Of a stretch of 64,000 nt of DNA, positions 3,473 to 50,534 are shown in pieces. Under the pieces are notes generated by a model, which was not told where the DNA came from, did not search any database, and saw nothing but the letters and a program-made list of their open reading frames with translations. A program made the translations under genes and the position numbers. This DNA comes from Actinomycetota bacterium (GTDB taxonomy: Bacteria > Actinomycetota > CADDZG01 > WHSQ01), in assembly GCA_009380005.1 (NCBI GenBank), contig WHSQ01000008.1, positions 1 through 64,000 of the forward strand, given 5' to 3'. Each line of letters opens with the position of its first letter. Position 1 is the first letter of the stretch.

Positions 3473-4285
3473 TCATAGCTCGAAGAAGATCCCGCCTTCC
3501 CACGGGTAGATGAAGTTGAAGCCCGGGCCGCGGAAGAACATGCCGATGATGGTCAGCACGGCGAAGGTCAGCATGTAGAAGGACCACAGCGTGATCGCGA
3601 GCTTGCGATCATCGGGTCGCGTCGACGGATTGCGGTCGATGAAGGGCAGGGCGAACCAGGTCAGGATCAAGACGTTCGGGATCGTCACGCCGGCGACCTG
3701 AGGGTGCCAGTAGCGCAACAGCTCCTGCAGGCCGAGGAAGTACCACGGGGCCTTGGAGGGGTTCGGCGTCTGGTTGACGTTCGAGAGCTCGCGTAACGGG
3801 GCATCGACCATCACCGAGAAGAACGTCAGGATCGCCATCACGACCAACAGCGCCACGAACTCGCCCGCCATCAGGTGCGGCCAGACGTTGACCCGGTCCA
3901 TCGGCTGCCGCTCGACCTTCTGGATCGCCTCCGGCTTGACCACCGCCAGCAGGCGCTGGACGCGCTCGGGCACCGCCCCGTTGCCGGCGGCCGCCTTCCG
4001 GGCCGGCGCGGCCTTGGCGGCGGGTTTCGGTGCTGCCTTGGTGGCGGTTCCCGCGGCCGGCTTCGCCTCGGCCGCGGGAGCGGCCGTCGCGCCCGACGCT
4101 GCGGCCGTCGCACCGTCCCGCTTGGGGGCCGGAGCCGTGGACGGGTCGGGCTTGCTCGGGTTCGCCGAGCCGCGCTGGGCCCGGACCCGCGCCGCCTTGG
4201 CCCGGGCCTGGGCGACGGCGGGCGAGGATCCCTTGGCCGTCTCCTCGGCTAGGACCTGATCGAAGACCTCGTCTGGCGTCGGCAT
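3473..4285 (-). CDS. Cytochrome b C-terminal subunit (subunit IV-like) with N-terminal cytoplasmic module
   Basis: A 270-residue protein. Residues 139-159, 198-215 and 229-250 are membrane helices equivalent to helices E-G of cytochrome b, i.e. the PetD/subunit IV half of a split cytochrome b. The Qo-site loop reads KAPWYFLGLQE, so the usual PEWY is APWY. Residues 1-39 are a helical module (PDEVFDQVL, then GSSPAVAQARAKAAR) also present in the cupredoxin at 26387 and in NuoI at 49278, followed by an Ala/Pro/Lys linker (about 45-105). The N-terminus should be cytoplasmic. It lies 12 bp behind the cytochrome b6-like gene. Confidence 0.85.
   Translation of the reverse strand: MPTPDEVFDQVLAEETAKGSSPAVAQARAKAARVRAQRGSANPSKPDPSTAPAPKRDGATAAASGATAAPAAEAKPAAGTATKAAPKPAAKAAPARKAAAGNGAVPERVQRLLAVVKPEAIQKVERQPMDRVNVWPHLMAGEFVALLVVMAILTFFSVMVDAPLRELSNVNQTPNPSKAPWYFLGLQELLRYWHPQVAGVTIPNVLILTWFALPFIDRNPSTRPDDRKLAITLWSFYMLTFAVLTIIGMFFRGPGFNFIYPWEGGIFFEL
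4169..4285 (-). other. Shared about 37-aa respiratory module, copy 1 (N-terminus of cytochrome b C-terminal subunit)
   Basis: This segment encodes residues 1-39 of the subunit IV-like protein. It is aligned by eye with residues 1-38 of the cupredoxin at 26387 and residues 327-363 of NuoI at 49278. Conserved in all three are E-[VI]-[FY]-x2-VL near the start and GS-[SA]-P-x-VA-x2-RAK-x-AR in the middle, ending in Gly. It is predicted as two short amphipathic helices. I do not recognise it as a named domain. Confidence 0.8.
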
Positions 4286-4297
4286 CGTTGCCCGGCC

Positions 4298-5068
4298 CTA
4301 CATCGGGCCCGAGATCCCACCGTCCTTCCTGACTCTCCAGAAGTGGATCGAGATGAAGATCACGATGATGAACGGCAGGAACAGGACGTGCAGCGTGTAC
4401 CAGCGCAGCAGGGTCTCCGGCCCGATCACCGGCCCCCCGAGCAGCGCGAAGCGCACCTGGTTACCGACGACCGGCACGCTGCCGCCCATCTCGGTGCCGA
4501 CCGTGACGGCCCACACCGCAAGCTGGTCCCACGGCAGCAGGTAGCCGGTGAAGGCCAGAAGGATCGTCAGCAGGAACAGCACGACGCCGACGATCCAGTT
4601 GAACTCCCGCGGCGGCTTGTACGAGCCCGTGTAGAAGACCCGGGCCATGTGGAGCATCACGCTGATCACCATCAGGTGCGCTCCCCACCGGTGCAGGTTC
4701 CGCACCAATAGTCCGAAGGAGATCGTCGTGTGCAGGTTCTGCATGTCCGTGTACACGGCTTCGACCGAGGGCCGGTAGAAGAACATCAGGTAGATCCCGG
4801 TGATCGTCAGAAGGATGAAGAGGAAGAACGACAACCCGCCGAGGCACAACGTGTAGGAGAGCTTGATGCCGTGGCGCTTCACCTTCACCGGGTGCAGGTG
4901 GTACAGGAGCGAGTTCATCACCACGTAAGCGCGGTTGCGGGGGGAATCGGCGTAGCCCCTCCGGAAGATGGAGCCGGGGCGGAAGATGGAACGCCACACC
5001 TGGCTGCCGTGAAGCTTCCCGGGCAGCTCCCGAGCGATCTCCCTGGGACTGAAACGTCGCGTCGCCAA
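4298..5068 (-). CDS. qcrB: Cytochrome b6-like N-terminal cytochrome b subunit
   Basis: With the TTG start at 5068 (preceded by AGGTAGG) the protein has 256 residues. A longer reading frame begins at 5134 but would overlap the ferredoxin gene by 41 bp. It has four membrane helices with haem b ligands H126/H140 in helix B and H227/H242 in helix D. The 14 residues between the last pair are the b6f-type spacing rather than the bc1-type 13. Together with the following gene it forms the split cytochrome b that oxidises menaquinol. The gene product is very likely a membrane core subunit; the start is less certain. Confidence 0.85.
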   Translation of the reverse strand: MATRRFSPREIARELPGKLHGSQVWRSIFRPGSIFRRGYADSPRNRAYVVMNSLLYHLHPVKVKRHGIKLSYTLCLGGLSFFLFILLTITGIYLMFFYRPSVEAVYTDMQNLHTTISFGLLVRNLHRWGAHLMVISVMLHMARVFYTGSYKPPREFNWIVGVVLFLLTILLAFTGYLLPWDQLAVWAVTVGTEMGGSVPVVGNQVRFALLGGPVIGPETLLRWYTLHVLFLPFIIVIFISIHFWRVRKDGGISGPM

Positions 5069-5093
5069 TCTGTTCCCTACCTGACCTTTCTCC

Positions 5094-5510
5094 CTAACCG
5101 GCCTTCTGCGCCGCCGGCACGGTTCCCATCGCACGCGCGCCGCGCTTCTTGCCGCCGGTCACCTCGCTCTGCACGAGGGCGCCGGTCGGGCAGCGCTCGA
5201 CGCAGAGGTTGCACCGGGTGCAAGCGTTGTCGTCGATCAGGAACAGGATGTCGTTGCCCTCCATGCTGTTGGCGAGCTCGACGTTGCCGGAGTTCTGCAC
5301 GGCCGTTGGGTCCACCATGAAGATGCAGTACCAGGGGCAGATGTCGACGCAGCCCTCGCAGAGGATGCACTGCTCGGGGATGAAGTCGATGAAGCGCTTG
5401 GGTTTGACGGCCCCCTTGAGCCAGTCTTCATCCACCAACTGCATCTCGTAATCGGCACGGAAGATCGGCTTCTCGATGATCTCCATTTCCTTGGGCTCTA
5501 GTTCGGCCAT
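5094..5510 (-). CDS. 2[4Fe-4S] ferredoxin of the cytochrome bc operon, NuoI-like
   Basis: A 138-residue soluble protein with two complete cluster motifs: C48-C51-C54-C58 followed by Pro, and C97-C100-C103-C107 followed by Pro. An extra cysteine, C62, follows the first motif (CPWYC). The same extra cysteine at the same distance occurs in the NuoI at 49278 (CPDWC) but not in the NuoI at 37290. It is encoded between a small membrane protein and the b6-like subunit, in the same operon, which suggests it docks on the cytoplasmic side of the bc complex or feeds it electrons. A free ferredoxin is the alternative. Confidence 0.85.
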   Translation of the reverse strand: MAELEPKEMEIIEKPIFRADYEMQLVDEDWLKGAVKPKRFIDFIPEQCILCEGCVDICPWYCIFMVDPTAVQNSGNVELANSMEGNDILFLIDDNACTRCNLCVERCPTGALVQSEVTGGKKRGARAMGTVPAAQKAG

Positions 5511-5519
5511 CGTCCTCTC

Positions 5520-21042: not shown

Positions 21043-21720
21043 ATGAACGCGCAGCCGACCCGTCAAGATCCCCTCCTGGGCGAGGTCCGCTTCCGGCTGC
21101 CGTTGCCGGTCATCCTTCCCATCGGTTCGCTCATCGTGATCGCGCTCGTCGCCATCGCCTTCTCTCAGATCCTGCTGAACGTCCCCAAGGAGGTGGCGAC
21201 GGTCATCGCCCTGGCGACGGCGGCGAACCTCCTCGTGGCGCTGTCGGTCATCGCGACGCGACCCCAGATGAGCCGGGCGCGCATCCTCGAGGTGCTCGCC
21301 GTCATGCTGTACCCGATCATCATCGGCGCCGGCTTGGCGATCGTCGGCGTCGGGGAGGGGACGGCCGCCGGCGAACACCAGGCCGGAGGCCCGGCCGCCG
21401 AGGGCATCGCCGTCTCGGCCGCCAACGTGCAGTTCGACACCGACCAGATCGCGCTGCCCGCCGACGAGGCGACGACGATCACGTTCGACAACGAGGATTC
21501 CGCCGACCACAACATCGCGATCTACGAGGACGAAAGCGCCCGGCAGGACCTGTTCAAGGGCGCGACCGTGGCGCCCGGAGACAGCACGAACTACGAGATC
21601 CCGGCGATCCCGGCGGGCGAGTACTACTTCCAGTGCGACGTCCACCCGTCGATGAACGGCGATGTGACCGTCGCTGCCGAGGGCGAACCGGCCGAAGGCG
21701 AGGGGGAGACGGCCTCCTAG
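21043..21720 (+). CDS. Membrane-anchored cupredoxin 1
   Basis: A 225-residue protein. Three hydrophobic segments (about 22-45, 55-70 and 85-106) form the membrane part, and residues about 125-212 form a cupredoxin domain with type-1 copper ligands: His in ADHNIAIY, then Cys, His and Met in FQCDVHPSMNG. An acidic tail follows. It could carry electrons to the caa3 oxidase or deliver copper. It is the last gene of the cox operon. Its domain closely matches cupredoxin 2 at 26387, so the two are paralogues. Confidence 0.85.
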   Translation: MNAQPTRQDPLLGEVRFRLPLPVILPIGSLIVIALVAIAFSQILLNVPKEVATVIALATAANLLVALSVIATRPQMSRARILEVLAVMLYPIIIGAGLAIVGVGEGTAAGEHQAGGPAAEGIAVSAANVQFDTDQIALPADEATTITFDNEDSADHNIAIYEDESARQDLFKGATVAPGDSTNYEIPAIPAGEYYFQCDVHPSMNGDVTVAAEGEPAEGEGETAS

Positions 21721-26386: not shown

Positions 26387-26500
26387 TTGGACCCCGAAGA
26401 GATCTATCAAGAGGTGCTCACCGAGGAGCAGCAGAAGGGCTCGGCCCCCGCCGTCGCCGAGGGGCGCGCGAAGGCGGCCCGAGCCCGAGCCGAGCTCGGC
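26387..26500 (+). other. Shared about 37-aa respiratory module, copy 2 (N-terminus of cupredoxin 2)
   Basis: Residues 1-38 of the cupredoxin protein. They align without gaps to residues 2-39 of the cytochrome b C-terminal subunit: EEIYQEVL corresponds to DEVFDQVL, and GSAPAVAEGRAKAAR corresponds to GSSPAVAQARAKAAR. Confidence 0.82.
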
Positions 26501-27436
26501 TCTCCCCACCCCAAGGAACCGAAGTGGTGGCCCGGCGCGCAGCCTCATCTCGAGGGTGGCGGCGAAGCGGCGGAGGCGGAACCGGCCCCGGTCGAAGCCG
26601 AGGCCGAGGAGGCCCCCGCGCCCGAAGTGCCGGCGGCGGAACCCGCGCCGGCGCCCGCGGCGGAAGCTCAGCCCCAGCAACCCGCGGTCACCGCCGCTCA
26701 GGCGGAAGCGGACGCGACCCCCCAGACCGTCGCCCCTCCCTCCGATCCCGGTATCGAGACGCCGGCCGCGGCCGCCGCGGCGGAACCCGCGCCGGCGGCC
26801 GTCGCGGTCGCTCCCGCGGCGCCCCAGACCGTCACGCAGCTGCCACCTGAGGCGCGGCCCGCGGGGGTGCGGACGGGGACGGCCAGCGGCAACCGGCTCC
26901 GTCCCGAGGATGGCGTCTCGACCGAGGCGCAGTTCGAGGGCCAGGCGGCGATGTACGAACGGCGCAAGGTCATCGACGAGCTCGTGGCCACCGGCGTCCC
27001 GGCTGCGGCCGTCCGGCGCGACGACGACAGCGGCTCGCCCATGCTCGCCCTCCTCTACCTCATCATCCCGATCCTGGCTCTCGTGGTCCTGGCGAACCTG
27101 AACATCGCCGGGGGCGAAGAGGGCGGCGGCGGAGGCGGCGAAGGTGGGGGAGGTGGGGGAGGCATCAAGCTCTCGGCGGCCAACGTCCAGTTCGACACCG
27201 ACACCCTCCAGTTGCCGGCCGGCGAAGAGGCCACGATCAGCTTCAACAACGAGGACACCGCGGAGCACAACGTCGCGATCTACGAGGACTCCAGCGCCGA
27301 GGCGGATCTCTTCAAGGGCCAGATCATCTCGGGCGGGGACTCGACCGAATACCAGGTGGGGCCCTTCGAGGCCGGCGCCTACTACTTCCAGTGCGACGTC
27401 CACCCGGCGATGAACGGGGACGTCGAGGTCTCGTAG
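26387..27436 (+). CDS. Membrane-anchored cupredoxin 2 with N-terminal shared module
   Basis: A 349-residue protein from TTG 26387 (GGGAGA lies 6 nt upstream). Residues 1-38 are the module shared with the cytochrome b C-terminal subunit and NuoI-2. An Ala/Pro/Glu-rich linker follows (about 50-165), then a short helical segment, a membrane helix (about 217-239), a Gly-rich stretch and a C-terminal cupredoxin domain (about 263-349) with His in AEHNVAIY and Cys, His, Met in FQCDVHPAMNG. The module would be cytoplasmic and the copper domain outside. This could tether a copper carrier to respiratory complexes. Confidence 0.85.
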   Translation: MDPEEIYQEVLTEEQQKGSAPAVAEGRAKAARARAELGSPHPKEPKWWPGAQPHLEGGGEAAEAEPAPVEAEAEEAPAPEVPAAEPAPAPAAEAQPQQPAVTAAQAEADATPQTVAPPSDPGIETPAAAAAAEPAPAAVAVAPAAPQTVTQLPPEARPAGVRTGTASGNRLRPEDGVSTEAQFEGQAAMYERRKVIDELVATGVPAAAVRRDDDSGSPMLALLYLIIPILALVVLANLNIAGGEEGGGGGGEGGGGGGGIKLSAANVQFDTDTLQLPAGEEATISFNNEDTAEHNVAIYEDSSAEADLFKGQIISGGDSTEYQVGPFEAGAYYFQCDVHPAMNGDVEVS

Positions 27437-30114: not shown

Positions 30115-31351
<1,237 letters not shown>

Positions 31352-31355
<4 letters not shown>

Positions 31356-36047: not shown

Positions 36048-37303
36048 TCGACTGGATCAAACAGCTCCCCGGCAACGTCATCGACTTCATCGGGCCGGAG
36101 ATCATCATCGCGACGGCCAAGGTCGTGCTCGTGTTCGGGGTACTCCTCGTGACGACGCTCCTGGTGATCTGGTTCGAGCGCCGGGTCATCGCGGATATGC
36201 AGGCCCGCGTCGGACCGAACCGGTGGGGGCCGTTCGGTCTCTTCCAGACGCTCGCGGACGGGATCAAGCTCTTCTTCAAGGAAGACTTCCGCCCCGCCGC
36301 CGCCGATCGCTGGACCTTCGTGATCGCCCCGGTGATGGCGATGGTTCCCGCGTTCCTGGCGTTCGCCGTCGTGCCGTTGGGAGACCACGTCGTCATCGCC
36401 GGCCATCGCGTCGATCTGGTGATGAGCGACCTGAACATCGGCATCCTGTACTTCCTCGCCGTGGGTTCGCTGGGCGTGTACGGGGTGGTGCTCGCCGGCT
36501 GGGCATCGGGATCCAAGTACCCGTTGATCGGAAGCATCCGCTCGACGGCACAGATGATCAGTTACGAGATCGCGCTGGGACTGTCGCTGGTGCCGATCGC
36601 GTTGGTCGCGGGCAGTCTCTCGACGGTGGACATCGTGGCCGCGCAGGCAGGGACCTACGACAACATCGTGCTGTTCGGCCGCGATCTGAACTTCCTCGAA
36701 GGGATCATCCCGCACTGGTTCATCGTCCAGCAGTGGCCGGCGTTCTTGATCTTCCTCGTCGCCGGCATCGCGGAGACGAACCGCGCCCCCTTCGACCTGC
36801 CGGAGGCGGAGACGGAGCTGGTCGCGGGTTACCACACGGAGTACTCGGGCATCCGCTTCGCCATGTTCTTCCTCGGCGAGTACGTACACGTGGTGGCCAT
36901 CTCTGCCATGGCGGCCACGTTGTTCTTCGGGGGCTGGCACGGTTGGAACCCCGCGTTCCCGGCCGCGATCGACTGGCTGCGATGGATCGTCCCCATCTTC
37001 TGGTTCACGATCAAGACCGTCGCGTTCGTCTATCTGTTCGTTTGGCTGCGCGCTACGTTGCCGCGGTTGCGCTACGACCGGTTGATGTGGGTGGGGTGGA
37101 AGCGGTTGATCCCCGGCGCGCTCGTCTGGATCGTCGTCACGGCGGTGTTGAACAGCGATCCCGAGGAAGTACCGACCAGCGCCAGGCTCTGGGTCATGGC
37201 CGTGGTGTTCGCGATCTTGCTCGCCTGGGTCTGGCGGGGTGACCCGCGACTCACGGCCCTGGAGCCGTGGCGGAAGAAGGAGGTCACTCGTGGCACTGCC
37301 TGA
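36044..37303 (+). CDS. nuoH: NuoH, complex I membrane subunit (14-subunit complex)
   Basis: A 419-residue ND1-type protein with eight or more membrane helices, the quinone-site loop [19 protein letters not shown], and [27 protein letters not shown]. Start at GTG 36044 overlapping nuoG. It links the quinone cavity to the proton-pumping arm. Confidence 0.95.
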
Positions 37304-37778
37304 GATATTCACGGGCCTGACGACCGTCATCAAGAACGTCTTCCGTCGCAAGGACACGGTGGGCTATCCAGAGGTGCGGCGACTTCCCTTCCCCCGTTAC
37401 AAGGGGCGCCACATCCTCGACCGTCATCCCGACGGCCTCGAGAAATGCATCGGCTGCGAGCTATGTGCAGGGGTCTGTCCCGCCGACGCGATCCGGGTGG
37501 TCGGAGCGGAGAACACGGCGGAGGAGAGGTTCTCGCCGGGCGAGCGCTACGCGCAGATCTACCAGATCAATTATCTGCGTTGCATCTTCTGCGGGCTGTG
37601 TGTCGAGGCCTGTCCGACGGAGGCTCTGCTGATGACGACCGAGTACGAGCTGTCCGGTTCGACGCGTGAAGACCTCATCTACACGAAGGAGCAGCTGATC
37701 GTCGATGCTCCCATCATCCGCCACTGGGACACGAAGAAGGAGTTGCCGCCCGACATCAACCTGAAGGGCACCTCCTAG
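37290..37778 (+). CDS. nuoI: NuoI, complex I 2[4Fe-4S] subunit (14-subunit complex)
   Basis: A 162-residue protein from GTG 37290 (AGGAGG 7 nt upstream), overlapping nuoH by 14 bp. Two cluster motifs, [12 protein letters not shown] and [12 protein letters not shown], are intact. It has the normal length, without the long tail of the second NuoI and without the extra Cys after the first motif. Confidence 0.95.
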
Positions 37779-38350
37779 TGGACGTAGCGGTTTTCGTCGC
37801 CGTCTTCGTGCTCGCCCTGGGCTCCTCGCTGGCGATGCTCTTCGCACGTAATGCAGTTCACGTTGCCCTCTTCCTCGTCGCCGGTCAGGTCGCTCTGGCG
37901 GTCGCCTTCCTGCTGCAGGGTGCGTTCTTCGTCGCAGCGGTACAGGTGATCGTTTATGCCGGCGCCATCATGGTGTTGTTCCTCTTCGTGATCATGCTGT
38001 TGGGAGTCGACCAGCGCGAGGCACTGATCGAGCCCCTCCCCGGGCAACGCCCGCTCGCGATCGGCCTCGGCGCGCTCTTGGTGTTGGAGATCCTGTACGC
38101 CTCGATGCGGGGTCTCGATCTGGCGAGCGCGAGCCCCGAGGGTTCGGCAGCGCTGGCCCGGCTGAACGCGGATCCCGGCAACGTCGAAGCTCTGGCCCGG
38201 CTGCTCTTCAGCGACTTCCTGCTGCCCTTCGAAGTGACCTCCGTCCTGCTGGTCGCCGCGATCGTCGGCGTCATGGCGCTGGCTCGCAGGATGGGCGGTC
38301 CGCTCACGGCCTCGGAACGATCGGATCGCGCAGAAGAGGTTGCCGCATGA
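37778..38350 (+). CDS. nuoJ: NuoJ, complex I membrane subunit (14-subunit complex)
   Basis: A 190-residue ND6-type protein with five membrane helices and the conserved [21 protein letters not shown] stretch. TAGTG overlap with nuoI and ATGA overlap with nuoK. Confidence 0.93.
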
Positions 38351-38655
38351 CGCGGGTCGACCCGGGATACTTCCTTGCCCTCGCCGGGCTCATGTTCAGC
38401 ATCGGGGTGGTCGGCACACTCGTCCGGCGCAATGCGATCGTGATCTTCATGTTCGTCGAGCTGATGTTGAACGCCGTGAACCTGGCGTTCATCACGTTCG
38501 CGCGCATGCACGGCGAGCTCGACGGCCAGGTACTGGTCTTCTTCGTGTTGGTCGTCGCTGCGGCCGAAGCCGTCGTCGGTCTCGCGATCATCCTGCGCAT
38601 CTACCGGCTGCGCGAGTCCGCCAACGTCGACGACGTCAACCTCCTGAAGTGGTGA
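38347..38655 (+). CDS. nuoK: NuoK, complex I membrane subunit (14-subunit complex)
   Basis: A 102-residue, three-helix ND4L-type protein with [15 protein letters not shown] and [12 protein letters not shown], carrying the two membrane glutamates needed for proton translocation. Confidence 0.94.
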
Positions 38656-38659
38656 TCGG

Positions 38660-40564
38660 GTGACCTCGGGAGACTTCGGTCAGCTCGCCCCCTTGATCAT
38701 CGCTCTGCCTCTGCTGGGCGCACTCGCGCTGTTCTTCTTCGGCCGTCGCATCGGGACCGCCGCCGGCACCGTGGCCTCGGCGACGATCGGCGCCGCGTTC
38801 GTGATCGGCGTAGTCACCTTCTTCGAGCTCCTGGGCCACGAGCACGGACATCGTTCGAGCGTGGTGGAGCTGTGGGAGTGGGTAGCCGCCGGCAGCTTCC
38901 GCGTGGGCGTCGACCTGTTGATCGACGAGCTCTCGATGGTCATGGTCCTGGTCGTCACCGGGGTCGGAACTCTCATCCACGTGTACTCGATCGGTTACAT
39001 GCACGACGATCCCAGGTACCCGACGTTCTTCGCCTACCTCAACCTTTTCGCGGCGTCGATGTTGCTGCTGGTGCTCGCCGAGAACGTCTTGTTGTTGTAC
39101 GTGGGCTGGGAGGGTGTCGGCCTCTGTAGCTATCTGCTGATCGGGTTCTGGTTCGAGAGACCGGCCGCAGCCAACGCTGCGAAGAAAGCCTTCATCGTCA
39201 ACCGGATAGGTGACCTCTCGTTCCTGATCGGCATCCTCGTCCTGACCACGACCGTTGGTGCATTGTCCGTCGGTCAGATCAACGCCGAAGCGGGTGCCAT
39301 CTCCGCGGGGATGGCAACCGTGGCGGCGCTCCTGCTGTTCGGCGGGGCGACCGGTAAGAGTGCCCAGATACCGCTCTACGTGTGGCTGCCGGACGCGATG
39401 GAGGGCCCGACCCCGGTATCGGCTCTGATCCACGCCGCCACGATGGTGACGGCCGGTGTGTACATGGTGGCCCGGCTGTCGCCGGTGTTCGAGGCATCTT
39501 CGGGCGACTTGGCCTTGACGATCGTCGCCTGGGTGGGTGCCGCCACGGCTCTGTTCGCGGCGGTCATGGCTTGCGCGGAGAACGACATCAAGCGCGTCCT
39601 GGCGTACTCGACGATCTCGCAGCTCGGCTACATGTTCCTGGCCCACGGGGTCCACGCGTACTCGGCCGGGATCTTCCACCTCGCGACGCACGCGTTCTTC
39701 AAGGCGCTGATGTTCCTTGGCGCCGGCGCGGTGATGCATGCGCTGGCCGGCGAGACGGACCTGCGGAAGATGGGCGGTCTGCGGAGGGTGATGCCGGTCG
39801 TCGGGTGGACGTTCGCAGCCGGCTGGCTGGCGATCAGCGGGGTGATCCCGTTCGCCGGATTCTTCTCCAAGGACGCGATCCTTGCTTCCGCGTGGGCCGA
39901 CGGCGAGTACGGCCTGTGGGCGGTCGGCGTGCTCACGGCTCTGTTGACCGCGTTCTACATGTCCCGTCTCTACTTCAGCGTCTTCGAGGGCGACCTCGTC
40001 GTGCCCGAGGGCGTGCACGTCCACGACGCCCCGGTCACGATGGCTACGGCCCTGGTGCCACTCGGCGTCCTGTCCGTCGTCGGCGGGGTGCTGAACCTGC
40101 CCGGGGTCCTGACCCTGGAGCACTTCCTGGAACCGGCCGTCGGCGAGTCCCACGTTCCCGAGGGCCTGATCCCCTGGGTCCTCGCCGGCCTCGCGTTGTT
40201 CGTCGCGGCCCTCGGCATCGGCCTTGGATGGCGGCTGTACGCGCGTCGTGACGGCGAGGCGAGACGCCGGGCGTGGCAGCGGCGCGTACCGTGGCTCGTC
40301 ACGGGGGCCCGCAACAAGTTCTACGTGGACGAGTACTACGGGGGCCTGGTCGTGGGACCGGCGAAGCGGACGGCTACCTTCTTCGCCGATGTCTTCGACA
40401 CCCGCGTGATCGACGGCGTCGCCAACGGGGCCGGATGGGTCGTCGCTCGTTCGGCGGCGGGCCTGCGCAAGATGCAGACCGGCTACGTACGCAACTACGG
40501 GCTGGTCTACCTCTTCGGCGTCGTACTGGTCTTCTCGCTGTTGATCATGAAGGCGGTTCGGTGA
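38660..40564 (+). CDS. nuoL: NuoL, complex I antiporter-like subunit (14-subunit complex)
   Basis: A 634-residue ND5-type protein from GTG 38660. It has the GWEGVGLCSYLLIGFW motif with the key Glu, a lysine-containing helix (GGATGKSAQIPLYVWLPDAMEGPTPVSALIHAATM) region, and a long amphipathic C-terminal helix with final anchor. Proton-pumping subunit. Confidence 0.94.
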   Translation: MTSGDFGQLAPLIIALPLLGALALFFFGRRIGTAAGTVASATIGAAFVIGVVTFFELLGHEHGHRSSVVELWEWVAAGSFRVGVDLLIDELSMVMVLVVTGVGTLIHVYSIGYMHDDPRYPTFFAYLNLFAASMLLLVLAENVLLLYVGWEGVGLCSYLLIGFWFERPAAANAAKKAFIVNRIGDLSFLIGILVLTTTVGALSVGQINAEAGAISAGMATVAALLLFGGATGKSAQIPLYVWLPDAMEGPTPVSALIHAATMVTAGVYMVARLSPVFEASSGDLALTIVAWVGAATALFAAVMACAENDIKRVLAYSTISQLGYMFLAHGVHAYSAGIFHLATHAFFKALMFLGAGAVMHALAGETDLRKMGGLRRVMPVVGWTFAAGWLAISGVIPFAGFFSKDAILASAWADGEYGLWAVGVLTALLTAFYMSRLYFSVFEGDLVVPEGVHVHDAPVTMATALVPLGVLSVVGGVLNLPGVLTLEHFLEPAVGESHVPEGLIPWVLAGLALFVAALGIGLGWRLYARRDGEARRRAWQRRVPWLVTGARNKFYVDEYYGGLVVGPAKRTATFFADVFDTRVIDGVANGAGWVVARSAAGLRKMQTGYVRNYGLVYLFGVVLVFSLLIMKAVR

Positions 40565-42117
40565 GCAACTTCCCGTTCCTCGACGTCGTGATCTTCCTAC
40601 CGCTGGCGGGAGCTTTCGCGGTGGGGCTCATCCCGCGCGACAACGACGGTGCGCTGCGGTGGACCGCCTTCGCCGTGACGCTGGTGACCTTCGTCGTGTC
40701 CCTCGGCCTTCTGTTGAACTTCGACTCGGACGCGGCCGGCTTCCAGCTCGGCACCGATGTGCGTTGGGTGAAGGATTGGGGGGTCGGCTACATCACGGGG
40801 ATCGACGGCATCAGCCTGTGGATGATCATGCTCACGACGTTCCTGATGCCCCTGGCGGTCCTGGCGTCGTGGACGATCACGACCCGATTGAAGCCTTACT
40901 TCGTCTTCCTGCTCGCGCTCGAGACCGGGATGCTCGGCGTCTTCTCGGCCCTAGACCTGTTCCTCTTCTACGTCTTCTGGGAGGTCGCCCTCATCCCGAT
41001 GTACTTCCTGATCGGGATGTGGGGGTACGCCAATCGGATCTACGCGGCCGTGAAGTTCTTCCTGTTCACCGTGCTGGGTTCGCTGTTGATGCTCGTCGCG
41101 ATCCTGTTCGTGTACTTCAACGCCGGCGAAGGAGCGACGTTCGACTACCGCGCGCTCCTGGGGACCCCGTTCTCCCCGGAGGTCCAGCGACTGTTGTTCC
41201 TCGGCTTCTTCGCAGCCTTCGCCGTGAAGGTGCCGCTCGTGCCGCTCCACACCTGGCTGCCCGACGCTCACACCGAAGCGCCCACGGCGGGTTCGGTGAT
41301 GCTGGCCGCCGTCATGCTGAAGATGGGCGCCTACGGGCTGTTGCGTTTCGCGATCCCTCTGTTCCCGGACGCGGCGCGCGAGTTCGTCCCGCTCGTCATG
41401 ACGCTCGCCATCATCGGCATCCTCTACGGCGCCGCGGTCGCCGTGATGCAGAAGGACCTCAAGCGTCTCGTCGCCTACTCCTCGGTCGCCCACCTGGGGT
41501 TCGTCGTCCTGGGGATGTTCGTGGGGACGGTCGAAGGCATGAGCGGCGGGATCCTGCAGATGATCAACCACGGTCTTTCGACCGGGGCGCTGTTCCTGCT
41601 CGTCGGAGCGCTCTACGACCGGCGGCACTCGCGGCTGATCGCCGACTTCGGGGGCCTGTCGAAGTCCGTCCCGGTCCTGGCGGGCATCTTCCTCTTCGTA
41701 GCGCTGTCGTCGCTGGGCTTGCCGGGGCTCAACGGCTTCGTCGGCGAGTTCCTCATCCTGCTGGGGACGTGGACGGCTTACCGGTGGTGGGTCGTCCCCG
41801 CCGCGTTCGGCATCGTTCTCGCCGCGATCTACCTGTTGTGGGCCTACCAGCGCGTCTTCCACGGAGAGCCCGTGATCGAGGAGAACCGCGTCATGATCGA
41901 TCTGAACCTGCGCGAGGTCTCGATGCTGGCGCCGATCATGGCTCTGATCGTGCTGATCGGCGTTTACCCCAAGCCGTTCCTCGACACGATCGAGCCCGCC
42001 GCCGAGCGCACCGCGCAGGTCTTGAAAGAGGGTTCGGTCGCCTCCCGAGACGGGGCGCAACAGCTACGTCGTCACATCGTGGCCGGCCCCCTCGTTCCCG
42101 TGCTCGAGGAGGACTAG
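40561..42117 (+). CDS. nuoM: NuoM, complex I antiporter-like subunit (14-subunit complex)
   Basis: A 518-residue ND4-type protein from GTG 40561 (GTGA overlap). It has FYVFWEVALIPMYFLIGMWG and LPDAHTEAPTAGSVMLA with the conserved Glu and Lys residues. Gene order nuoL-M-N is canonical. Confidence 0.94.
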   Translation: MSNFPFLDVVIFLPLAGAFAVGLIPRDNDGALRWTAFAVTLVTFVVSLGLLLNFDSDAAGFQLGTDVRWVKDWGVGYITGIDGISLWMIMLTTFLMPLAVLASWTITTRLKPYFVFLLALETGMLGVFSALDLFLFYVFWEVALIPMYFLIGMWGYANRIYAAVKFFLFTVLGSLLMLVAILFVYFNAGEGATFDYRALLGTPFSPEVQRLLFLGFFAAFAVKVPLVPLHTWLPDAHTEAPTAGSVMLAAVMLKMGAYGLLRFAIPLFPDAAREFVPLVMTLAIIGILYGAAVAVMQKDLKRLVAYSSVAHLGFVVLGMFVGTVEGMSGGILQMINHGLSTGALFLLVGALYDRRHSRLIADFGGLSKSVPVLAGIFLFVALSSLGLPGLNGFVGEFLILLGTWTAYRWWVVPAAFGIVLAAIYLLWAYQRVFHGEPVIEENRVMIDLNLREVSMLAPIMALIVLIGVYPKPFLDTIEPAAERTAQVLKEGSVASRDGAQQLRRHIVAGPLVPVLEED

Positions 42118-43593
42118 ATGGAGTTCGAGGCTCCTGCCGTCCAGCTCGGCGCCATCGGGCCCGAGATCGCCCTCGTCACGACGGCGCTCCTGCTGCTGAT
42201 CGTCGACGCGTTCATCCCTGAAGGGGAGGAGCGCTGGTATCTCGCCGTGCTGGCGACGATCGGCTTCGGCGTCGCCATCATCCTGGCCGCGAACCAGTGG
42301 GGCGAGCGAGAGCTGCAACTGGCCCGCATGGTGGCGGTCGACAACTTCGCGACGTTCGTGAAGACCTCCGTCGCCGTCTTCGCCGTCCTCACGGTATGGC
42401 TCTCGAGGGACTACCTCAAACGGTCGGAGGACGAGGAGTCGGAGTTCTACGCGCTGCTGTTGTTCGCCGCCGCCGGCATGATGCTGATGGCGTCGGCGGC
42501 CGACCTGATCATGGTGTTCCTGGCTCTCGAGATCTTCTCGATCTCCCTGTACGTCCTGGTCGGCTTCCGCCGCCGCTCTCTCGCGAGCCAGGAATCGGCG
42601 ATGAAGTACTTCTTGCTGGGGGCGTTCTCGTCGGCGTTCTTTTTGATGGGGATCGCTCTCGTCTACGGCGCTACGGGCACGACCAACTTCTATCCGGGCG
42701 GAGGCGGCGAGGGGATCGCCGGGTATCTGGTGAGCAGCGCAGCGAGCGACGTTGATCTGCTGGTCCTGGGCGTCGGGCTCCTCATCGTGGGTCTCGGGTT
42801 CAAGATCGCCGCGGTGCCGTTCCACATGTGGACGCCGGACGCGTACCAGGGAGCGCCGTCGCCGATCACGGGATTCATGGCGGCCGGGACGAAGTTCGCG
42901 GCCGTCGCCACGATGCTACGGCTCTTCGTCGTGGTGCTGTATCCCCTCCGAGCCGACTGGCGACCGATCCTGATCGCCGTCGCCATCGCCACGATGCTCC
43001 TGGGGTCCGTCCTGGCGGTGATCCAGGAGGACGTGAAGCGACTCCTTGCCTATTCGTCGATCGCCCACGCCGGCTTCGTGCTGACCGGACTGATCGCGGC
43101 GAACGACCGGGGCCTGTCCGGCTCGCTGTTCTATCTGGCGACGTACGGCCTCACGGTGCTCGGCGCGTTCGCGGTGGTGACCGTGCTCGCCGGTCGTAAG
43201 GAACGGAACGTCACCCTCGCCAGCTATCGAGGGCTGTTCTACGAACGTCCGTTGCTGGCCGGCGCGCTGACGTTGTTCATGCTGTCGCTCGCCGGCGTTC
43301 CCCTGACTTCCGGCTTCGTCGGCAAGTTCCTGGTCTTCGGCGCAGCCATCCAGGCGGGGTATTGGTGGCTCGCCGTGATCGGCATGCTCGCCAGCGTGAT
43401 CGCAACCTTCTTCTACCTGCGGGTGCTGGTCGTCATGTACATGCAGGAGGACGATCGGGGCCTCCAACCCGCGATCACGGGCCGCCTCGCCAACTCGGTC
43501 GTGGGCCTGACCGCCGCGGCGACGCTGGTGCTGGGGATCGTATGGGGTCCCTTGATCGACCTGGCCGAGAGGGCCACGGTCTTCTTCGCCTAG
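42118..43593 (+). CDS. nuoN: NuoN, complex I antiporter-like subunit (14-subunit complex)
   Basis: A 491-residue ND2-type protein with FLALEIFSISLYVLVGF and the KIAAVPFHMWTPDAYQGAPSP region. The ATG follows the nuoM stop directly. Its stop is 4 bp from the stop of the convergent metallophosphoesterase; no terminator hairpin is visible between them. Confidence 0.94.
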   Translation: MEFEAPAVQLGAIGPEIALVTTALLLLIVDAFIPEGEERWYLAVLATIGFGVAIILAANQWGERELQLARMVAVDNFATFVKTSVAVFAVLTVWLSRDYLKRSEDEESEFYALLLFAAAGMMLMASAADLIMVFLALEIFSISLYVLVGFRRRSLASQESAMKYFLLGAFSSAFFLMGIALVYGATGTTNFYPGGGGEGIAGYLVSSAASDVDLLVLGVGLLIVGLGFKIAAVPFHMWTPDAYQGAPSPITGFMAAGTKFAAVATMLRLFVVVLYPLRADWRPILIAVAIATMLLGSVLAVIQEDVKRLLAYSSIAHAGFVLTGLIAANDRGLSGSLFYLATYGLTVLGAFAVVTVLAGRKERNVTLASYRGLFYERPLLAGALTLFMLSLAGVPLTSGFVGKFLVFGAAIQAGYWWLAVIGMLASVIATFFYLRVLVVMYMQEDDRGLQPAITGRLANSVVGLTAAATLVLGIVWGPLIDLAERATVFFA

Positions 43594-45418: not shown

Positions 45419-45651
45419 GGGGATGCGGTCCAAGCTCGATGCCGGTCGTTGGAACAGCGGTTCGCCGCGGGCCGCCCGCCTCCTGCCCGGGGGCCCGGAA
45501 CGGGCCGGCGCGCGCTTCTTCACGAGCGGGCAAGTACCCGTGACCAGGCGGCCTGCGTGTTAGTTTGCGCCGGGTATCCAGGACATTTCCGTTGCTGGAG
45601 CCCCATGCGTTGCGGAGGGATCGATACCGGCGCGACAGGAGCGGCAAGCAA

Positions 45652-46020
45652 GTGCCTGAAGGCTATTTCGGTCAGTACTTCACGATCGCTATCTTCATAG
45701 TCGCGGGCGTGGTCCTGGTCCTCGGGACCTTCGCGTTGGCCAAGCTGCTGAGCCCCTTCCAGCCGCACACCGAGAAGCTGACGACCTACGAGTCGGGCAT
45801 CGATCCGATCGGCACGGGTTGGAGCCAGGCCAACGTCCGCTATTACATCTTCGCCCTGCTCTTCGTGATCTTCGACGTGGAGGCCATCTTCCTGTTCCCC
45901 TGGGCCGTCGTCTTCGAGCGACTCGGGACCCAGGCCTTCGTCGAGATGGTGATCTTCATCGGGATCCTCACCCTCGCCCTGTTGTACGCGATCAAGAAGA
46001 AGGTCCTCGAATGGCTGTGA
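45652..46020 (+). CDS. nuoA: NuoA-2, complex I membrane subunit (11-subunit complex)
   Basis: A 122-residue protein from GTG 45652 with [11 protein letters not shown] and [12 protein letters not shown]. It opens the second complex I operon. The 233-bp gap to the divergent phosphoesterase has a possible -10 (TAGTTT near 45560) but no Rex-like palindrome. Confidence 0.92.
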
Positions 46021-46541
46021 TGGAGAAGGTCAAGCTGCCTAAGCCCGCCGCTTGGGCGTTGAACTGGAGCCGCAGGTACTCGCTGTGGGTGATGCAGTTC
46101 GGCCTCGCCTGTTGCGGGATCGAGATGGGGGCGGCGTTCGCCAGCAAGTTCGACGTGATCCGGTTCGGGGTGATCCCCTTCCCGGCTTCTCCCCGCCAGG
46201 CCGACCTCTTGGTCGTCGCAGGGACCGTGACCGACAAGATGGCGGCTCCTCTGAAACGCGTGTACGACCAGATGCCCGAGCCCAAATACGTGATCTCGAT
46301 GGGGTCGTGCGCCAACTGCGGGGGGCCCTACTGGGATTCGTACTCGGTGACGAAGGGCTGCGACCAGCTCATGCCGGTCGACGTCTACGTCCCAGGCTGC
46401 CCACCGCGGCCCGAGGCGCTGCTGCAGGGCATCATCCGGCTCCAGGCCAAGATCGACGGTGAAGACATCCAGGAGAAGTGGAAGGGCCACGACACGCTGA
46501 TCCCCCACATCCCGGAGCCGGGCCTGGCGGGAGGCATCTAG
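46011..46541 (+). CDS. nuoB: NuoB-2, complex I N2-cluster subunit (11-subunit complex)
   Basis: A 176-residue protein with N2 ligands in [17 protein letters not shown] and VPGCPPRPE. The ATG at 46011 (AAGAAGG upstream) overlaps nuoA-2 by 10 bp; an ATG at 46020 is possible. It carries an additional Cys (CANC) near the third ligand, as is common in NuoB. Confidence 0.93.
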
Positions 46542-46545
46542 GGCG

Positions 46546-47106
46546 GTGTCGGTGCAAGAACGGGTGAGCGCCGAGGAAGCGGTCGAGCGGCTCCGTTCGA
46601 CGCTCGGGGACGACGTGGGAGATGTCGAGGTCCGCTTCGGGCATCTGGATGCGACCTGCTCGGCCGAGAACCTGCGCCACGTCATGACCACGCTGCGCGA
46701 CGAGCCCGGCCTCCGTTTCGAATTCTTCACGTTCCTCTCGGCGATCGACCGCTCCGAGTTCGGTGGCCCCGACAAGCCGGACAAGCACGGGGGCCTGGAG
46801 CTCATCGTCCACCTGTACTCGCCCGCCCACGTCCTGCACATAAACGTGCGCGTGCCGCTCGACCTCGCCGATCCTCGCTGCGAGAGCATCTCCGCCATCT
46901 ACCGGGGGGCCAACTGGCACGAGCGAGAGATGCGCGACATGTTCGGGATCCAGTTCGAAGGTCATCCGAACCTGACCGGGATCTACCTACCGGAAGACTT
47001 CGAGGGGCATCCGGGCCTGCGCTCGTTCAAGTTGCCCAACCGCGCCTTCATCAAGCCCTGGCCGGGAGCGAAGGATCCCGAAGAAGCCGCTGCCGGGGGG
47101 CGGTGA
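46546..47106 (+). CDS. nuoC: NuoC-2, complex I 30-kDa subunit (11-subunit complex)
   Basis: A 186-residue protein from GTG 46546 with YRGANWHEREMRDMFG and FEGHPNLTGIYLPEDFEGHPG, the NuoC signature. It is a separate gene, not fused to NuoD. Confidence 0.92.
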   Translation: MSVQERVSAEEAVERLRSTLGDDVGDVEVRFGHLDATCSAENLRHVMTTLRDEPGLRFEFFTFLSAIDRSEFGGPDKPDKHGGLELIVHLYSPAHVLHINVRVPLDLADPRCESISAIYRGANWHEREMRDMFGIQFEGHPNLTGIYLPEDFEGHPGLRSFKLPNRAFIKPWPGAKDPEEAAAGGR

Positions 47107-47107
47107 C

Positions 47108-48256
47108 GTGACCCAGATCCGCACCCCCGAGGACGTCGCCCGTGAGGTGGCCGAAGGTGGTCTGGCGACCCAGCAGATGATCCTGAACGTCGGCCCGCAG
47201 CACCCGGCGACGCACGGTGTGTTCCGCCTGCTGGCTACGATCGACGGCGAGATCCTGGCCGAGGCCGAGCCCGTTATCGGCTACATGCACCGCGGCTACG
47301 AGAAGCTCGTCGAGGCGCGCGACTATCGGCAGATCACGAACCTCGTGTCGCGCATGGATTGGCTGTCGGGTTTCAACAACGAGCTGCCGTTGGCGATGGC
47401 GCTCGAGACGTTGATGGAGATCGAGGTTCCGCCGAGGGCGCAATGGCTACGCGTCGTCATGCTGGAGATGAACCGCATCCTGAACCACCTGATGTTCTTC
47501 GCCTCGTTCGGCGCGGAGCTCGGTGCGATCACGCCGACCTTCTATGCCTTTCGCGAACGCGAGGACATCCAGCTGGCGATGGAGAGTGCGACCGGCGGCC
47601 GGATGCACTTCGGCTTCATGCGACCGGGTGGTCTCAAGGAAGACGTACCGCGCGGGTTCATCGCTCAGGCCCTCAAGAGCGTGCGACAGGTCATCGCCCG
47701 CTTGGACCAGTACGAAGACCTGCTCGTCGGCAACGAGATCTTCAAGCAGCGCACCGTAGATGTGGGAGTGCTGAGCCGGGAGCAGGTCATGTCGTACGGC
47801 GTCTCGGGCCCGATCGCTCGTGGCTCCGGCGTGTCGGACGATGTCCGTAAGGACGAGCCGTACCTCGTATACGACCGGTTCGACTTCAACGTCCCGATCG
47901 GCCACAGCGGGGACTGCTTCGACCGGTTCTGGGTCCTGGTGCACGAGGTCGTCGAGTCCGCCCGCATCGTGGAGCAGGCGATCGAGGGCCTGCCGGCCGG
48001 TCCCGTCCTCGGCAAGGTGCCGCGCGTGATCCAGGCTCCCGAGGGCGAGGTCTACGTGCGGGCCGAGAACCCGCTCGGCGAGCTCGGTTACTACCTGGCC
48101 TCGGACGGCGACCGCCGTCCCTACCGGCTGAAGATCCGGACCCCGAGCTTCAACAACGTCTCGGTGCTCCCGGAGGTCCTCCGCGGCACCTTCGTCGCCG
48201 ACATGATCGCCATCCTCGGCTCGTTCTTCTTCGTCTTGGGGGACATCGACCGTTGA
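47108..48256 (+). CDS. nuoD: NuoD-2, complex I 49-kDa subunit (11-subunit complex)
   Basis: A 382-residue protein with HPATHGVFRLLATIDGE and IGYMHRGYEKLVEARDY. The quinone-site residues are kept. Shorter than NuoD-1 and different in many loops. Start GTG 47108. Confidence 0.93.
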   Translation: MTQIRTPEDVAREVAEGGLATQQMILNVGPQHPATHGVFRLLATIDGEILAEAEPVIGYMHRGYEKLVEARDYRQITNLVSRMDWLSGFNNELPLAMALETLMEIEVPPRAQWLRVVMLEMNRILNHLMFFASFGAELGAITPTFYAFREREDIQLAMESATGGRMHFGFMRPGGLKEDVPRGFIAQALKSVRQVIARLDQYEDLLVGNEIFKQRTVDVGVLSREQVMSYGVSGPIARGSGVSDDVRKDEPYLVYDRFDFNVPIGHSGDCFDRFWVLVHEVVESARIVEQAIEGLPAGPVLGKVPRVIQAPEGEVYVRAENPLGELGYYLASDGDRRPYRLKIRTPSFNNVSVLPEVLRGTFVADMIAILGSFFFVLGDIDR

Positions 48257-49287
48257 TGCCTGAGTTCATCCAGAACTTCGAGCTGACCGCCTGGTGGATC
48301 CTCGCCATCAAGCTGATCGTCGTGCTGACGGTCGTGCCGGTCGGCGCCCTGGCGGGCGGCTACGCGTTGCACAAGGTCATGGCCCACCTCCAGCACCGGC
48401 TCGGTCCGATGTACGCGGGGGGCTTCCACGGTTGGGCGCAGACGCTGGCGGATGGGATCAAGTTCGTCCTGAAGGAAGACATCATCCCGGAGAAGGCCGA
48501 CAAGCCGGTCTTCAAGTACGCGCCGGCGATCATCTTCATCCCCATCCTGCTGCTGTATCTGGTGATCCCGGTCGACCGGCGATTGATCGTGCAGGATCTC
48601 GACGTCGGCCTCTTCTACCTCCTCGCCGTCAGCTCCATCCCCGCGATCGGCATCCTCATGGCCGGGTGGTCGAGCGCCAACAAGTACGCGCTGATAGGCG
48701 CGCTGAGGTCGGCGGCGCAGCTGATCGCCTACGAGCTACCGATCGTGCTGTCGGCGGCCACGGTCGCGATGCTTGCCGGGACGCTCTCCGTCGTGGGCAT
48801 CGTGGAGGCGCAGGACTGGCCGTTCCTGTTCTGGCCCCCCGGTATCGGTCTGATCGCGTTCATCATCTTCTTCGCGGGTTCCGTGGCGGAGATGAACCTT
48901 CCTCCGTTCGACATGCCGGTGGCAGAGTCCGAGATCATCACCGGCGCGTTCACCGAGTACTCGGGGATGCGCTTCATCTTCGGCTACTTCTTCGCCGAGA
49001 CGGCACACATGATCGCTTTCTCGGGACTCGCCGTGACGTTCTTCCTCGGCGGCTACAGGCCGATCGTGCCCTGGGAACCCCTCACCGTAATCCCCGGCAT
49101 CGTCTGGTTCATGCTCAAGCTGTTCGTGATGGTGTTCCTGTACCTCTGGGTACGCCCGACGTTCCCGCGGCTCCGAGAGGACCAACTGCAGAAGTTCGCG
49201 TGGAAAGGCCTGATCCCCGGCAGCCTCGGCCTGATCCTGGTGGCGGGGGCCTGGATCCTGTACGCACCGGAGTGGCTATGGCACTAG
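48256..49287 (+). CDS. nuoH: NuoH-2, complex I membrane subunit (11-subunit complex)
   Basis: A 343-residue ND1-type protein from the TGATG overlap with nuoD-2. It follows nuoD-2 directly: nuoE, F and G are absent. It has [15 protein letters not shown] and [27 protein letters not shown]. Confidence 0.93.
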
Positions 49288-50534
49288 ACGAGCGGGAAGT
49301 GCAACGCGAGATGGACGCGGCCGCGCACAAGCTCCGCAAGGAGAAGAAGCGCACCTATGGCATCGGCCTGCTCAAGGGTCTCGCGGTGACGTTGCGACAT
49401 CTCTTCAAACACAACACCGTGATCGAGTACCCCGACGTCAAGCAAGACCTACCGTCGCGCACCCGCGGCGTCATTGCCCTCAAGGAAGAGAACTGCACCG
49501 TGTGCATGCTTTGCGCGCGGGAGTGCCCCGACTGGTGCATCTACATCGATTCGCACAAGGAGACGCTCCCCCCGAAGCGGGCGGGGGGCCGCCCCCGGAA
49601 GCGCAACGTCCTGGACCGTTTCGCCATCGACTACGCGCTCTGTATGTATTGCGGTATCTGCGTCGAGGTGTGCCCCTACGACGCGCTGTTCTGGAGCCGC
49701 GAGTTCGAGTACGCCGAGTACGACATCCGTGAGCTGACCCACGAGAAGGAGAAGCTCTCCGACTGGATGGCGACGGTGCTTCCGCCCCCCGCCTTGGAGG
49801 AGGGCGCGCTGCTGCCCGGTCAGCCCGAGCCGCCGGCCCCCGCCGCCCCCTCGGGCGACGGCGCCGCCGCGGTCCCGGCCGGCGACACGGGAGCGGCCGA
49901 GATGAAGCCGGCGAGCGCGGCCCGCCCCGCCACCCAGACGGCCTCCGCCGCGGAGGTTCGTCCCGAGCAGGCGGCCGATGCACCCAAGGCCCCGTCCGCC
50001 GTGCAAGAGCCGGCCGGGTCCGAGCACGAGCAGGCGCCGGCCCCCGCCGCCACCAGCGCGACCCAGGTGGAGGAGGGTCAGCCCCCGACCAAGGCCGAGA
50101 CCGAAGCCCCCGCGGGATCGGCCGCGGCCACCGAGCCGGAGGCCCAGACCAGGGCCGTCCGGGAGTCCGGCGACTCCCCGTCGGCCACCGCGCGGGGCGA
50201 GGCCACCGGTGAGATCGAAACGCCTGCCCCGGCCGCCGTCCCCACGCCCACCGAGGACCCGGACGAGGTCTACGAGACCGTCCTGAAGGACCAGCTCGAG
50301 GCCGGTTCCTCGCCGCAGGTCGCCGAGGCTCGCGCCAAGGTCGCGCGGGTAAAGGCCGAGCGCGGCGTCCGCCGTGCGCCGACCCCCATCGAGACCGAGA
50401 AGAAGGTGCCGAGCGCTCCCGTGACGGGGCACTTCACCGAGCCGGTTCCCGGCGGTGCGCCCGCCGCGGAGGAACCCAAGCCGGAGCAGGGTCCGGTCGA
50501 GCCCACGGACGAGGAGAAGGGGCCGGACGGGTAG
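49278..50534 (+). CDS. nuoI: NuoI-2 with long tail carrying the shared module (11-subunit complex)
   Basis: A 418-residue protein from ATG 49278, overlapping nuoH-2 by 10 bp. The ferredoxin core has C73/C76/C79/C83 and C122/C125/C128/C132, plus an extra C87 (CPDWC) that recurs in the bc-operon ferredoxin. Residues 178-325 are an Ala/Pro/Glu linker, 327-363 are the shared module (DEVYETVL, then [15 protein letters not shown]), and a second disordered tail follows. Ordinary NuoI is about 160 residues. With no NuoE/F/G present, this subunit is the likely electron entry point, and the tail could recruit the donor or another complex. Confidence 0.9.
50256..50366 (+). other. Shared about 37-aa respiratory module, copy 3 (tail of NuoI-2)
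   Basis: Residues 327-363 of NuoI-2. Here the module is C-terminal to the folded domain, whereas in the other two proteins it is N-terminal. The core [15 protein letters not shown] aligns to the other copies without gaps. Confidence 0.82.

What the first reader, a model, noticed from the sequence alone, without database searches (positions are those of the whole stretch)
4169..50366. A shared ~37-aa module on three unrelated respiratory proteins (possible docking tag)
Residues 1-39 of the split cytochrome b C-terminal subunit, 1-38 of cupredoxin 2 and 327-363 of NuoI-2 align without gaps by eye and share a core GS-[SA]-P-x-VA-x2-RAK-x-AR. Each copy adjoins a long Ala/Pro linker, is N-terminal twice and C-terminal once, and by topology is cytoplasmic in all three. 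The three hosts belong to the bc complex, a copper carrier and the NADH-less complex I. That pattern is what a common binding partner, an oligomerisation tag or a respirasome tether would give. Similar N-terminal segments may exist in other actinobacteria, but I do not recognise a named domain.
Basis: partly seen in the sequence, partly recalled or inferred. Interest (0 to 1): 0.85.

Follow-up and report, generated by a model that had tools for sequence, protein, structure and literature searches.

The report
Shared helical tag on respiratory proteins
A ~38-residue helical hairpin, absent from every domain database searched, sits at the cytoplasmic end of a respiratory complex I subunit, a cytochrome b subunit and copper electron carriers in many Actinomycetota, so these bacteria probably use one shared tag to bring parts of their electron-transport chain together.

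Summary
Three window proteins (cytochrome b C-terminal subunit, cupredoxin-2, NuoI-2) share a 37-41 aa segment, 54-59% identical pairwise and 10-11 SD above shuffles. It occurs exactly three times in the 3.8 Mb genome; the next hit has E 0.5-0.9. It matches no Pfam family and no solved structure, and is predicted to be a two-helix hairpin (pLDDT 94). It is conserved in 95 of 397 sampled Actinomycetota genomes. The commonest hosts by far are the split cytochrome b subunit (N-terminus) and NuoI (C-terminus, 1-3 copies). Every NuoI host with readable upstream genes belongs to a complex I lacking NuoEFG. Other hosts are NuoC, cupredoxins (attached at opposite ends in two lineages), a cbb3-associated FixP-like protein, a PPOX-type soluble protein and a one-TM protein. 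Where topology can be read, the tag is cytoplasmic. In the window family the cytochrome b tag is as conserved (85%) as the membrane core (86%), while the linker between them is not (35%). 'Respiratory proteins only' is nearly but not fully right. Some sister lineages carry an unrelated short motif on the same cytochrome b subunit.

The parts
4169..4285 (-). Module copy 1: N-terminal residues 1-39 of the cytochrome b C-terminal subunit (subunit IV-like)
   Evidence: profile match E 4e-25 in own genome; alignment
3953..4168 (-). Ala/Pro-rich linker between module and membrane core of cytochrome b C-terminal subunit
   Evidence: 35% mean identity in the family against 85% for the module and 86% for the core; core starts at 3952
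3473..4285 (-). Host 1: cytochrome b C-terminal subunit (split cytochrome b)
   Evidence: PF00032, 7e-10; 3 predicted TM segments
4298..5134 (-). Cytochrome b N-terminal subunit, partner of host 1 (no module)
   Evidence: PF00033 2.6e-45, NF040969
2638..3453 (-). Rieske Fe-S subunit of the same bc complex (no module)
   Evidence: PF00355
26387..26500 (+). Module copy 2: N-terminal residues 1-38 of cupredoxin-2
   Evidence: profile match E 7e-24
26387..27436 (+). Host 2: membrane-anchored cupredoxin-2 (module, long Ala/Pro linker, one TM at residues 218-236, cupredoxin domain at 260-346)
   Evidence: PF13473 7e-11, PF00127 8.5e-8; TM; start taken as TTG at 26387, not proven
50256..50366 (+). 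Module copy 3: residues 327-363 of NuoI-2, near the C-terminus
   Evidence: profile match E 5e-25; register
49278..50534 (+). Host 3: NuoI-2 of the complex I that lacks NuoEFG
   Evidence: TIGR01971 1.9e-28, Fer4 domains
45565..56502 (+). Second complex I cluster: NuoA, B, C, D, H, I-2, J, L, M, N (NuoK not checked, expected between J and L); no NuoE/F/G
   Evidence: Pfam
37239..37778 (+). NuoI-1 of the complete complex I (cluster 29062-43593, with NuoE/F/G); carries no module, an internal control
21043..21720 (+). Cupredoxin-1 beside the oxidase genes; no module

Best explanation
The segment is a real, previously uncatalogued ~38-residue cytoplasmic domain: a two-helix hairpin with an on-average acidic helix 1, the turn G-[ST]-x-x, and a basic Ala-rich helix 2. 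It hangs on long flexible Ala/Pro linkers at the N- or C-terminus of electron-transport proteins. Shown here: sequence, conservation, host range and (by prediction) cytoplasmic placement. Inferred: it is a docking tag. Through it the complex I lacking NuoEFG (NuoI, sometimes NuoC), the split-cytochrome-b bc complex, copper carriers and, in some lineages, a cbb3-associated subunit or a soluble PPOX-like protein are held near one another on the cytoplasmic membrane face, by binding a common cytoplasmic partner or by weak, multivalent contacts between the tags. The likely benefit is local channelling of menaquinol and electrons along this branch of the chain. Which of the two binding modes applies is not decided; the common partner is slightly favoured.
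For: Exactly three copies in this genome, all on the electron route complex I -> bc -> Cu carrier. Conserved in 95 of 397 phylum genomes, in at least 14 families. Hosts are dominated by cytochrome b C-subunit and NuoI; also NuoC, cupredoxin N-terminal (one family) and C-terminal (another), and a FixP-like protein beside a CcoO homologue and a CcoN-like ORF. Module conserved like the membrane core (85% vs 86%), linker free (35%). Each host keeps its own module version (71-83% within host across genomes, 53% between hosts in one genome), so copies are old and separately maintained. Tandem copies, 2-3 per NuoI, in several lineages. All 39 module-bearing NuoI loci with readable upstream genes are NuoD-H-I-J or NuoC-H-I-J, with no room for NuoEFG, while NuoI-1 of the complete complex I has no module. 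AF2 hairpin, pLDDT 94. Co-occurrence with the split cytochrome b. Some sister lineages put a different short motif on the same cytochrome b subunit and on a membrane cytochrome c.
Against: No binding partner was identified and no interaction was tested. In a natural tandem AF2 gives two confident hairpins but low pTM (0.39), so no sign of stable module-module packing. Oxidase subunits of the window carry no module. Two host types, the PPOX-like soluble protein and the single-TM protein next to TilS/DUF2342 genes, do not lie in respiratory operons. Copy number and host set differ between lineages, so a fixed architecture is unlikely.
Confidence: 0.6

Rival explanations
1. The tag is an electron-input dock. 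It recruits one soluble redox protein (perhaps the PPOX/F420-type protein that itself carries the tag, or a ferredoxin-like donor) to the complex I that lacks NuoEFG; the copies on bc and Cu carriers serve the same recruited factor.
For: Every module-bearing NuoI with readable upstream genes belongs to the type without NuoEFG and the tag is at the end of NuoI or NuoC in the peripheral arm. Three families carry it on a soluble PPOX-like protein (best hit TIGR03667, 5.5e-8, below its cut-off). The donor of the 11-subunit complex I is an open question (PMC11238625).
Against: A cytoplasmic donor has no reason to bind cytochrome b, a cupredoxin or a cbb3-associated protein. The window genome has no module-bearing soluble protein. 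PPOX hits are weak and F420 use is untested.
Confidence: 0.2
2. The tag is a biogenesis or localisation signal: it binds an assembly factor, protease adaptor or a membrane microdomain, so that these proteins are assembled or placed together, without holding mature complexes together.
For: Works at either terminus and in soluble and membrane hosts. Helix 2 is strongly basic (mean +4.1), which could bind anionic lipid. Single-TM module proteins exist outside respiratory operons.
Against: Complex I, bc and cupredoxins need different cofactors and assembly factors; the Rieske, NuoB and oxidase subunits do not carry the tag. A compact hairpin with a conserved turn and V/Y/L/A core is more than a basic lipid-binding helix needs.
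Confidence: 0.15
3. No specific function: a low-complexity, Ala/Lys/Arg-rich tail that spread by duplication and drifts.
For: Short, Ala-rich, always next to low-complexity linkers.
Against: 85% identity in the module against 35% in the linker beside it; confident fold; 302 of 397 genomes have no match at all, so ordinary Ala-rich helices are not picked up; host-specific versions maintained across genomes.
Confidence: 0.03

Closest known systems
Bacterial microcompartment encapsulation peptides (from general knowledge)
   Same: Short helical tag on a flexible linker, at the N- or C-terminus of several unrelated enzymes, gathering them in one assembly
   Different: Two-helix hairpin, not one amphipathic helix; hosts are respiratory-chain proteins, most of them membrane-bound; no shell proteins were sought or seen; no sequence relation shown
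Peripheral subunit-binding domain of 2-oxo acid dehydrogenase E2 (Pfam E3_binding, from general knowledge)
   Same: ~35-40 aa all-helical domain on Ala/Pro-rich linkers that docks partner enzymes
   Different: No Pfam match of the module to it; host proteins unrelated; occurs on many hosts and at termini
SHOCT and similar short terminal bacterial domains (from general knowledge)
   Same: Short two-helix segment shared by unrelated proteins at a terminus
   Different: No Pfam match; SHOCT hosts are broad and not respiratory
Respiratory supercomplex III2IV2 of Actinobacteria (bcc-aa3; review PMC8361435, abstract seen)
   Same: Physical coupling of consecutive respiratory complexes in the same phylum
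   Different: Held by fixed subunits of bc and oxidase; here the bc complex is of the split b6f-like type and the shared element is a modular cytoplasmic tag that also reaches complex I and Cu carriers. Supercomplex formation is not shown here
11-subunit complex I lacking NuoEFG (PMC11238625)
   Same: The module-bearing NuoI belongs to this type
   Different: A C-terminal docking hairpin is not mentioned for the enzyme described there; its electron donor is unknown

Membership tests
Any curated Pfam domain (incl. SHOCT, E3_binding/PSBD) | Significant match of the module to a Pfam profile | tested here: not met
   47 modules scanned at E<=10: no family hit by more than 2 members, best E 0.037 for a single member; full host proteins show no domain over the module
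Any protein of solved structure | Sequence or fold relation to a PDB chain | tested here: not met
   profile: best E 0.27; Foldseek: no hit at E<=0.001, best E 1.9, generic helical pairs
11-subunit complex I (no NuoEFG) | NuoA-D and H-N present, no NuoE/F/G in the cluster | tested here: met
   window cluster 45565-56502 (NuoK not checked); 39 relatives show NuoD-H-I-J or NuoC-H-I-J
11-subunit complex I (no NuoEFG) | Does not oxidise NADH | not testable with these tools
   needs enzymology
Split (b6f-like) cytochrome b | Separate N-terminal (PF00033) and C-terminal (PF00032) subunits | tested here: met
   window 4298-5134 and 3473-4285
Docking / recruitment tag (functional kind) | Same segment on unrelated proteins of one pathway, on linkers, same compartment | tested here: met
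Docking / recruitment tag (functional kind) | Demonstrated binding partner | not testable with these tools
   no interaction data; tandem AF2 gives no packing evidence
PPOX-class F420-dependent oxidoreductase (one host type in relatives) | Score above curated cut-off of TIGR03667/TIGR03666/TIGR03618 | tested here: not met
   32.8 bits against 125.3 for TIGR03667; E 5.5e-8 suggests the superfamily only

The most novel reading that the evidence does not exclude
These Actinomycetota build a respiratory assembly not by fixed subunit interfaces but by a modular 'plug' shared by the complex I without NuoEFG, the split-b bc complex, mobile Cu carriers and, in some lineages, a cbb3-associated subunit and a soluble electron-input protein. 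Sister lineages use a second, unrelated plug at the same place.
Probability: 0.3. Interest if true: 0.92.

Novelty: new variant of a known kind. Interest (0 to 1): 0.78.

Why it matters
It is an unnamed domain family whose host list is nearly a respiratory-chain parts list, which makes the disputed question of how respiratory chains are organised in space testable with one deletable tag. On NuoI it is confined to complex I clusters without NuoEFG wherever I could check, the enzyme whose electron donor is still an open question (PMC11238625), so bait experiments with the NuoI hairpin could find its partner. If the docking reading is right, the tag could also be used to co-localise engineered electron-transfer proteins.

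Tried and rejected
(1) Low-complexity artefact: rejected. (2) Recent duplication or gene conversion among the three window copies: rejected by DNA and codon differences and by host-specific clustering across genomes. (3) Known domain by sequence or fold: none; the RC-U match in 7o0w (E 0.4) taken as chance. (4) Homotypic packing in a natural tandem (L156): AF2 gave two hairpins without a confident mutual arrangement, pTM 0.39; inconclusive. (5) A phylum control outside Actinomycetota with the genome search was not possible; the only cross-phylum evidence is a scan of one genome for each of 84,980 species for two strict peptide patterns, whose 27 confirmed hits all have Actinomycetota titles. 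(7) Literature for a named tag, a split-b N-terminal extension or a helical respiratory tether: nothing relevant. (8) A first shuffle test used a cytochrome b segment out of register by one residue; repeated correctly.
Full report
Observation. The three segments exist at the stated places. Aligned, they are TPDEVFDQVLAEETAKGSSPAVAQARAKAARVRAQRG (cytochrome b C-terminal subunit), DPEEIYQEVLTEEQQKGSAPAVAEGRAKAARARAELG (cupredoxin-2) and [37 protein letters not shown] (NuoI-2). Pairwise identity is 54-59%; ungapped BLOSUM62 scores are 109-116, while 20,000 shuffles never exceeded 38. DNA identity is 62-69%, and only about half to two thirds of identical residues share a codon, so the copies are not recent.

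Specificity. A profile of the three finds these three places and nothing else in the 3.8 Mb genome (E 4e-25 to 7e-24; next 0.54). A 43-row profile that spans very diverged forms still finds only these three (next 0.86). No Pfam or NCBIfam model covers the segment, a scan of 47 modules at E <= 10 gave only scattered hits, and no PDB sequence or fold matches significantly.

Structure. AlphaFold2 with 47 natural modules predicts a compact hairpin, helices 4-18 and 22-40, mean pLDDT 94. G19 and A25 are invariant in the broad 43-row alignment; V24, R28, K30 and A32 are nearly or fully fixed among the closer relatives. Helix 1 carries on average -2.7 charges (range -6 to +1) and helix 2 +4.1 (range -1 to +6). 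A natural tandem (L156) gives two confident hairpins joined by a disordered linker and pTM 0.39, so no evidence for a rigid pair.

Distribution. Nearly all same-family and all same-class genomes carry it; the same-family exception, G014, also gave no split-cytochrome-b match. In a draw of 397 Actinomycetota genomes 95 have it, from at least 14 families, and 302 have none. The strict-pattern scan of one genome for each of 84,980 species found only Actinomycetota MAG contigs. The module tracks the split cytochrome b: 87 genomes have both, 8 genomes only the module, 31 only the cytochrome, 271 neither (not corrected for phylogeny).

Hosts. A script over the fetched loci assigned 135 distinct module proteins to classes: 51 cytochrome b C-subunits (N-terminal module), 47 NuoI (C-terminal module; 1-3 copies), 12 single-TM proteins, 10 cupredoxins with N-terminal module, 8 soluble beta-sandwich/PPOX-like proteins, 4 NuoC (C-terminus) and 3 cupredoxins with two C-terminal modules; 22 more were left unassigned, mostly contig-end or frame-shifted pieces. 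One of the unassigned, L059, is a FixP_N-like protein (9e-4, below the family cut-off) with an N-terminal module, beside a CcoO homologue, a CcoN-like ORF (by eye) and NuoA/NuoB-like ORFs (by eye). The fetched set was chosen by me from the hit lists, so the proportions are indicative.

Topology. Cupredoxin-2 of the window is module, linker, TM, cupredoxin; in family f3 the order is signal peptide, cupredoxin, TM, linker, two modules. Both orders put the module in the cytoplasm. The FixP-like and single-TM proteins do so too, by predicted TM segments and flanking charges, and NuoI, NuoC and the PPOX-like protein are cytoplasmic (and family knowledge). Attachment to cupredoxins at opposite ends in two families suggests independent fusions with the same outcome.

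Selection. In ten window-family genomes the cytochrome b module has 85% mean pairwise identity, the linker 35% and the membrane core 86%. Modules of the same host are 71-83% identical between genomes, whereas different hosts within one genome are 53% identical, the same as different hosts between genomes (54%). So each host has its own old version and there is no concerted evolution.

Complex I type. In the window NuoI-1 of the complete complex I (NuoE/F/G at 31226-36047) has no module, while NuoI-2 of the cluster without NuoEFG has it. I checked 42 loci with a module-bearing NuoI in relatives (a few are two records of one genome): three lack the upstream genes or could not be read far enough, and the remaining ones all read NuoD-H-I-J or NuoC-H-I-J, with no NuoE/F/G match. 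The donor to such 11-subunit enzymes is described as an open question, with the idea of a docking platform (PMC11238625).

Mechanism. Shown: a conserved hairpin domain, on linkers, on several unrelated proteins of one electron route, in one compartment. Inferred: docking. I give 0.6 to a tag that gathers these proteins through a common partner or multivalent tag contacts, 0.2 to an electron-input dock for the complex I without NuoEFG, 0.15 to an assembly or localisation signal, and 0.03 to no function.

A parallel. Sister families without the module carry a different short motif, M-T-E-I-P-E-H-L-L-K-R-(S/A)..., once or twice at the N-terminus of the same cytochrome b subunit, at the cytoplasmic N-terminus of a membrane cytochrome c encoded near it, and on a weakly Nfu_N-like protein. 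Another family, f8 (G042), has almost no extension. This suggests the cytochrome b N-terminus is a recurrent site for cytoplasmic tags.

Known or new. The functional kind (terminal tags on linkers that gather enzymes) is known from microcompartments and 2-oxo acid dehydrogenases (general knowledge), but no sequence membership was found, and I found no report of such a tag on respiratory proteins (the library lacks most subscription papers). I therefore file it as a new variant of a known kind, built on a new domain family.

Noticed in passing
L221-L230, L232-L236 (cytochrome b subunit), L258, L261, L268, L270 (membrane cytochrome c), L269 (Nfu_N-like, weak): Second, unrelated short motif E(I/V)PEHLLKR(S/A)xxAxxKA, 1-2 copies, on the cytochrome b C-subunit and a membrane cytochrome c of lineages that lack the module.
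   Followed up: partly
L169:1813-2883, L159:1926-3152, L198:1669-2943, L202:928-3042: Soluble protein with beta-sandwich and PPOX-like parts carries the module at its C-terminus in families f28, f38 and f44, in f38 and f44 next to a NUDIX-like gene (by eye); possible redox partner.
   Followed up: partly
L134, L136, L145, L149, L066, L067, L129, L143: Single-TM protein (signal-like N-terminus, short outside loop, cytoplasmic C-terminal module) in families f9, f47 and f58; in f9 next to DUF2342- and TilS-like genes; role unknown.
   Followed up: partly
L059:2549-3283 (-): Module at the N-terminus of a FixP_N-like one-TM protein beside a CcoO homologue and a CcoN-like ORF, just upstream of a reductase-like ORF, NuoA and NuoB.
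   Followed up: partly
window 26950-27040: Cupredoxin-2 has a second conserved stretch just before its TM (YERRKxIDELVxTGVPAxAA), similar in rhythm to half a module.
   Followed up: no
L156, L157, L158 (family f38): Two module copies separated by only ~12 residues at the N-terminus of the cytochrome b subunit; a good construct for structural work.
   Followed up: yes
L021, L041 (genome G005): Cytochrome b and NuoI genes of this draft genome are frame-shifted around the module, probably assembly errors.
   Followed up: no
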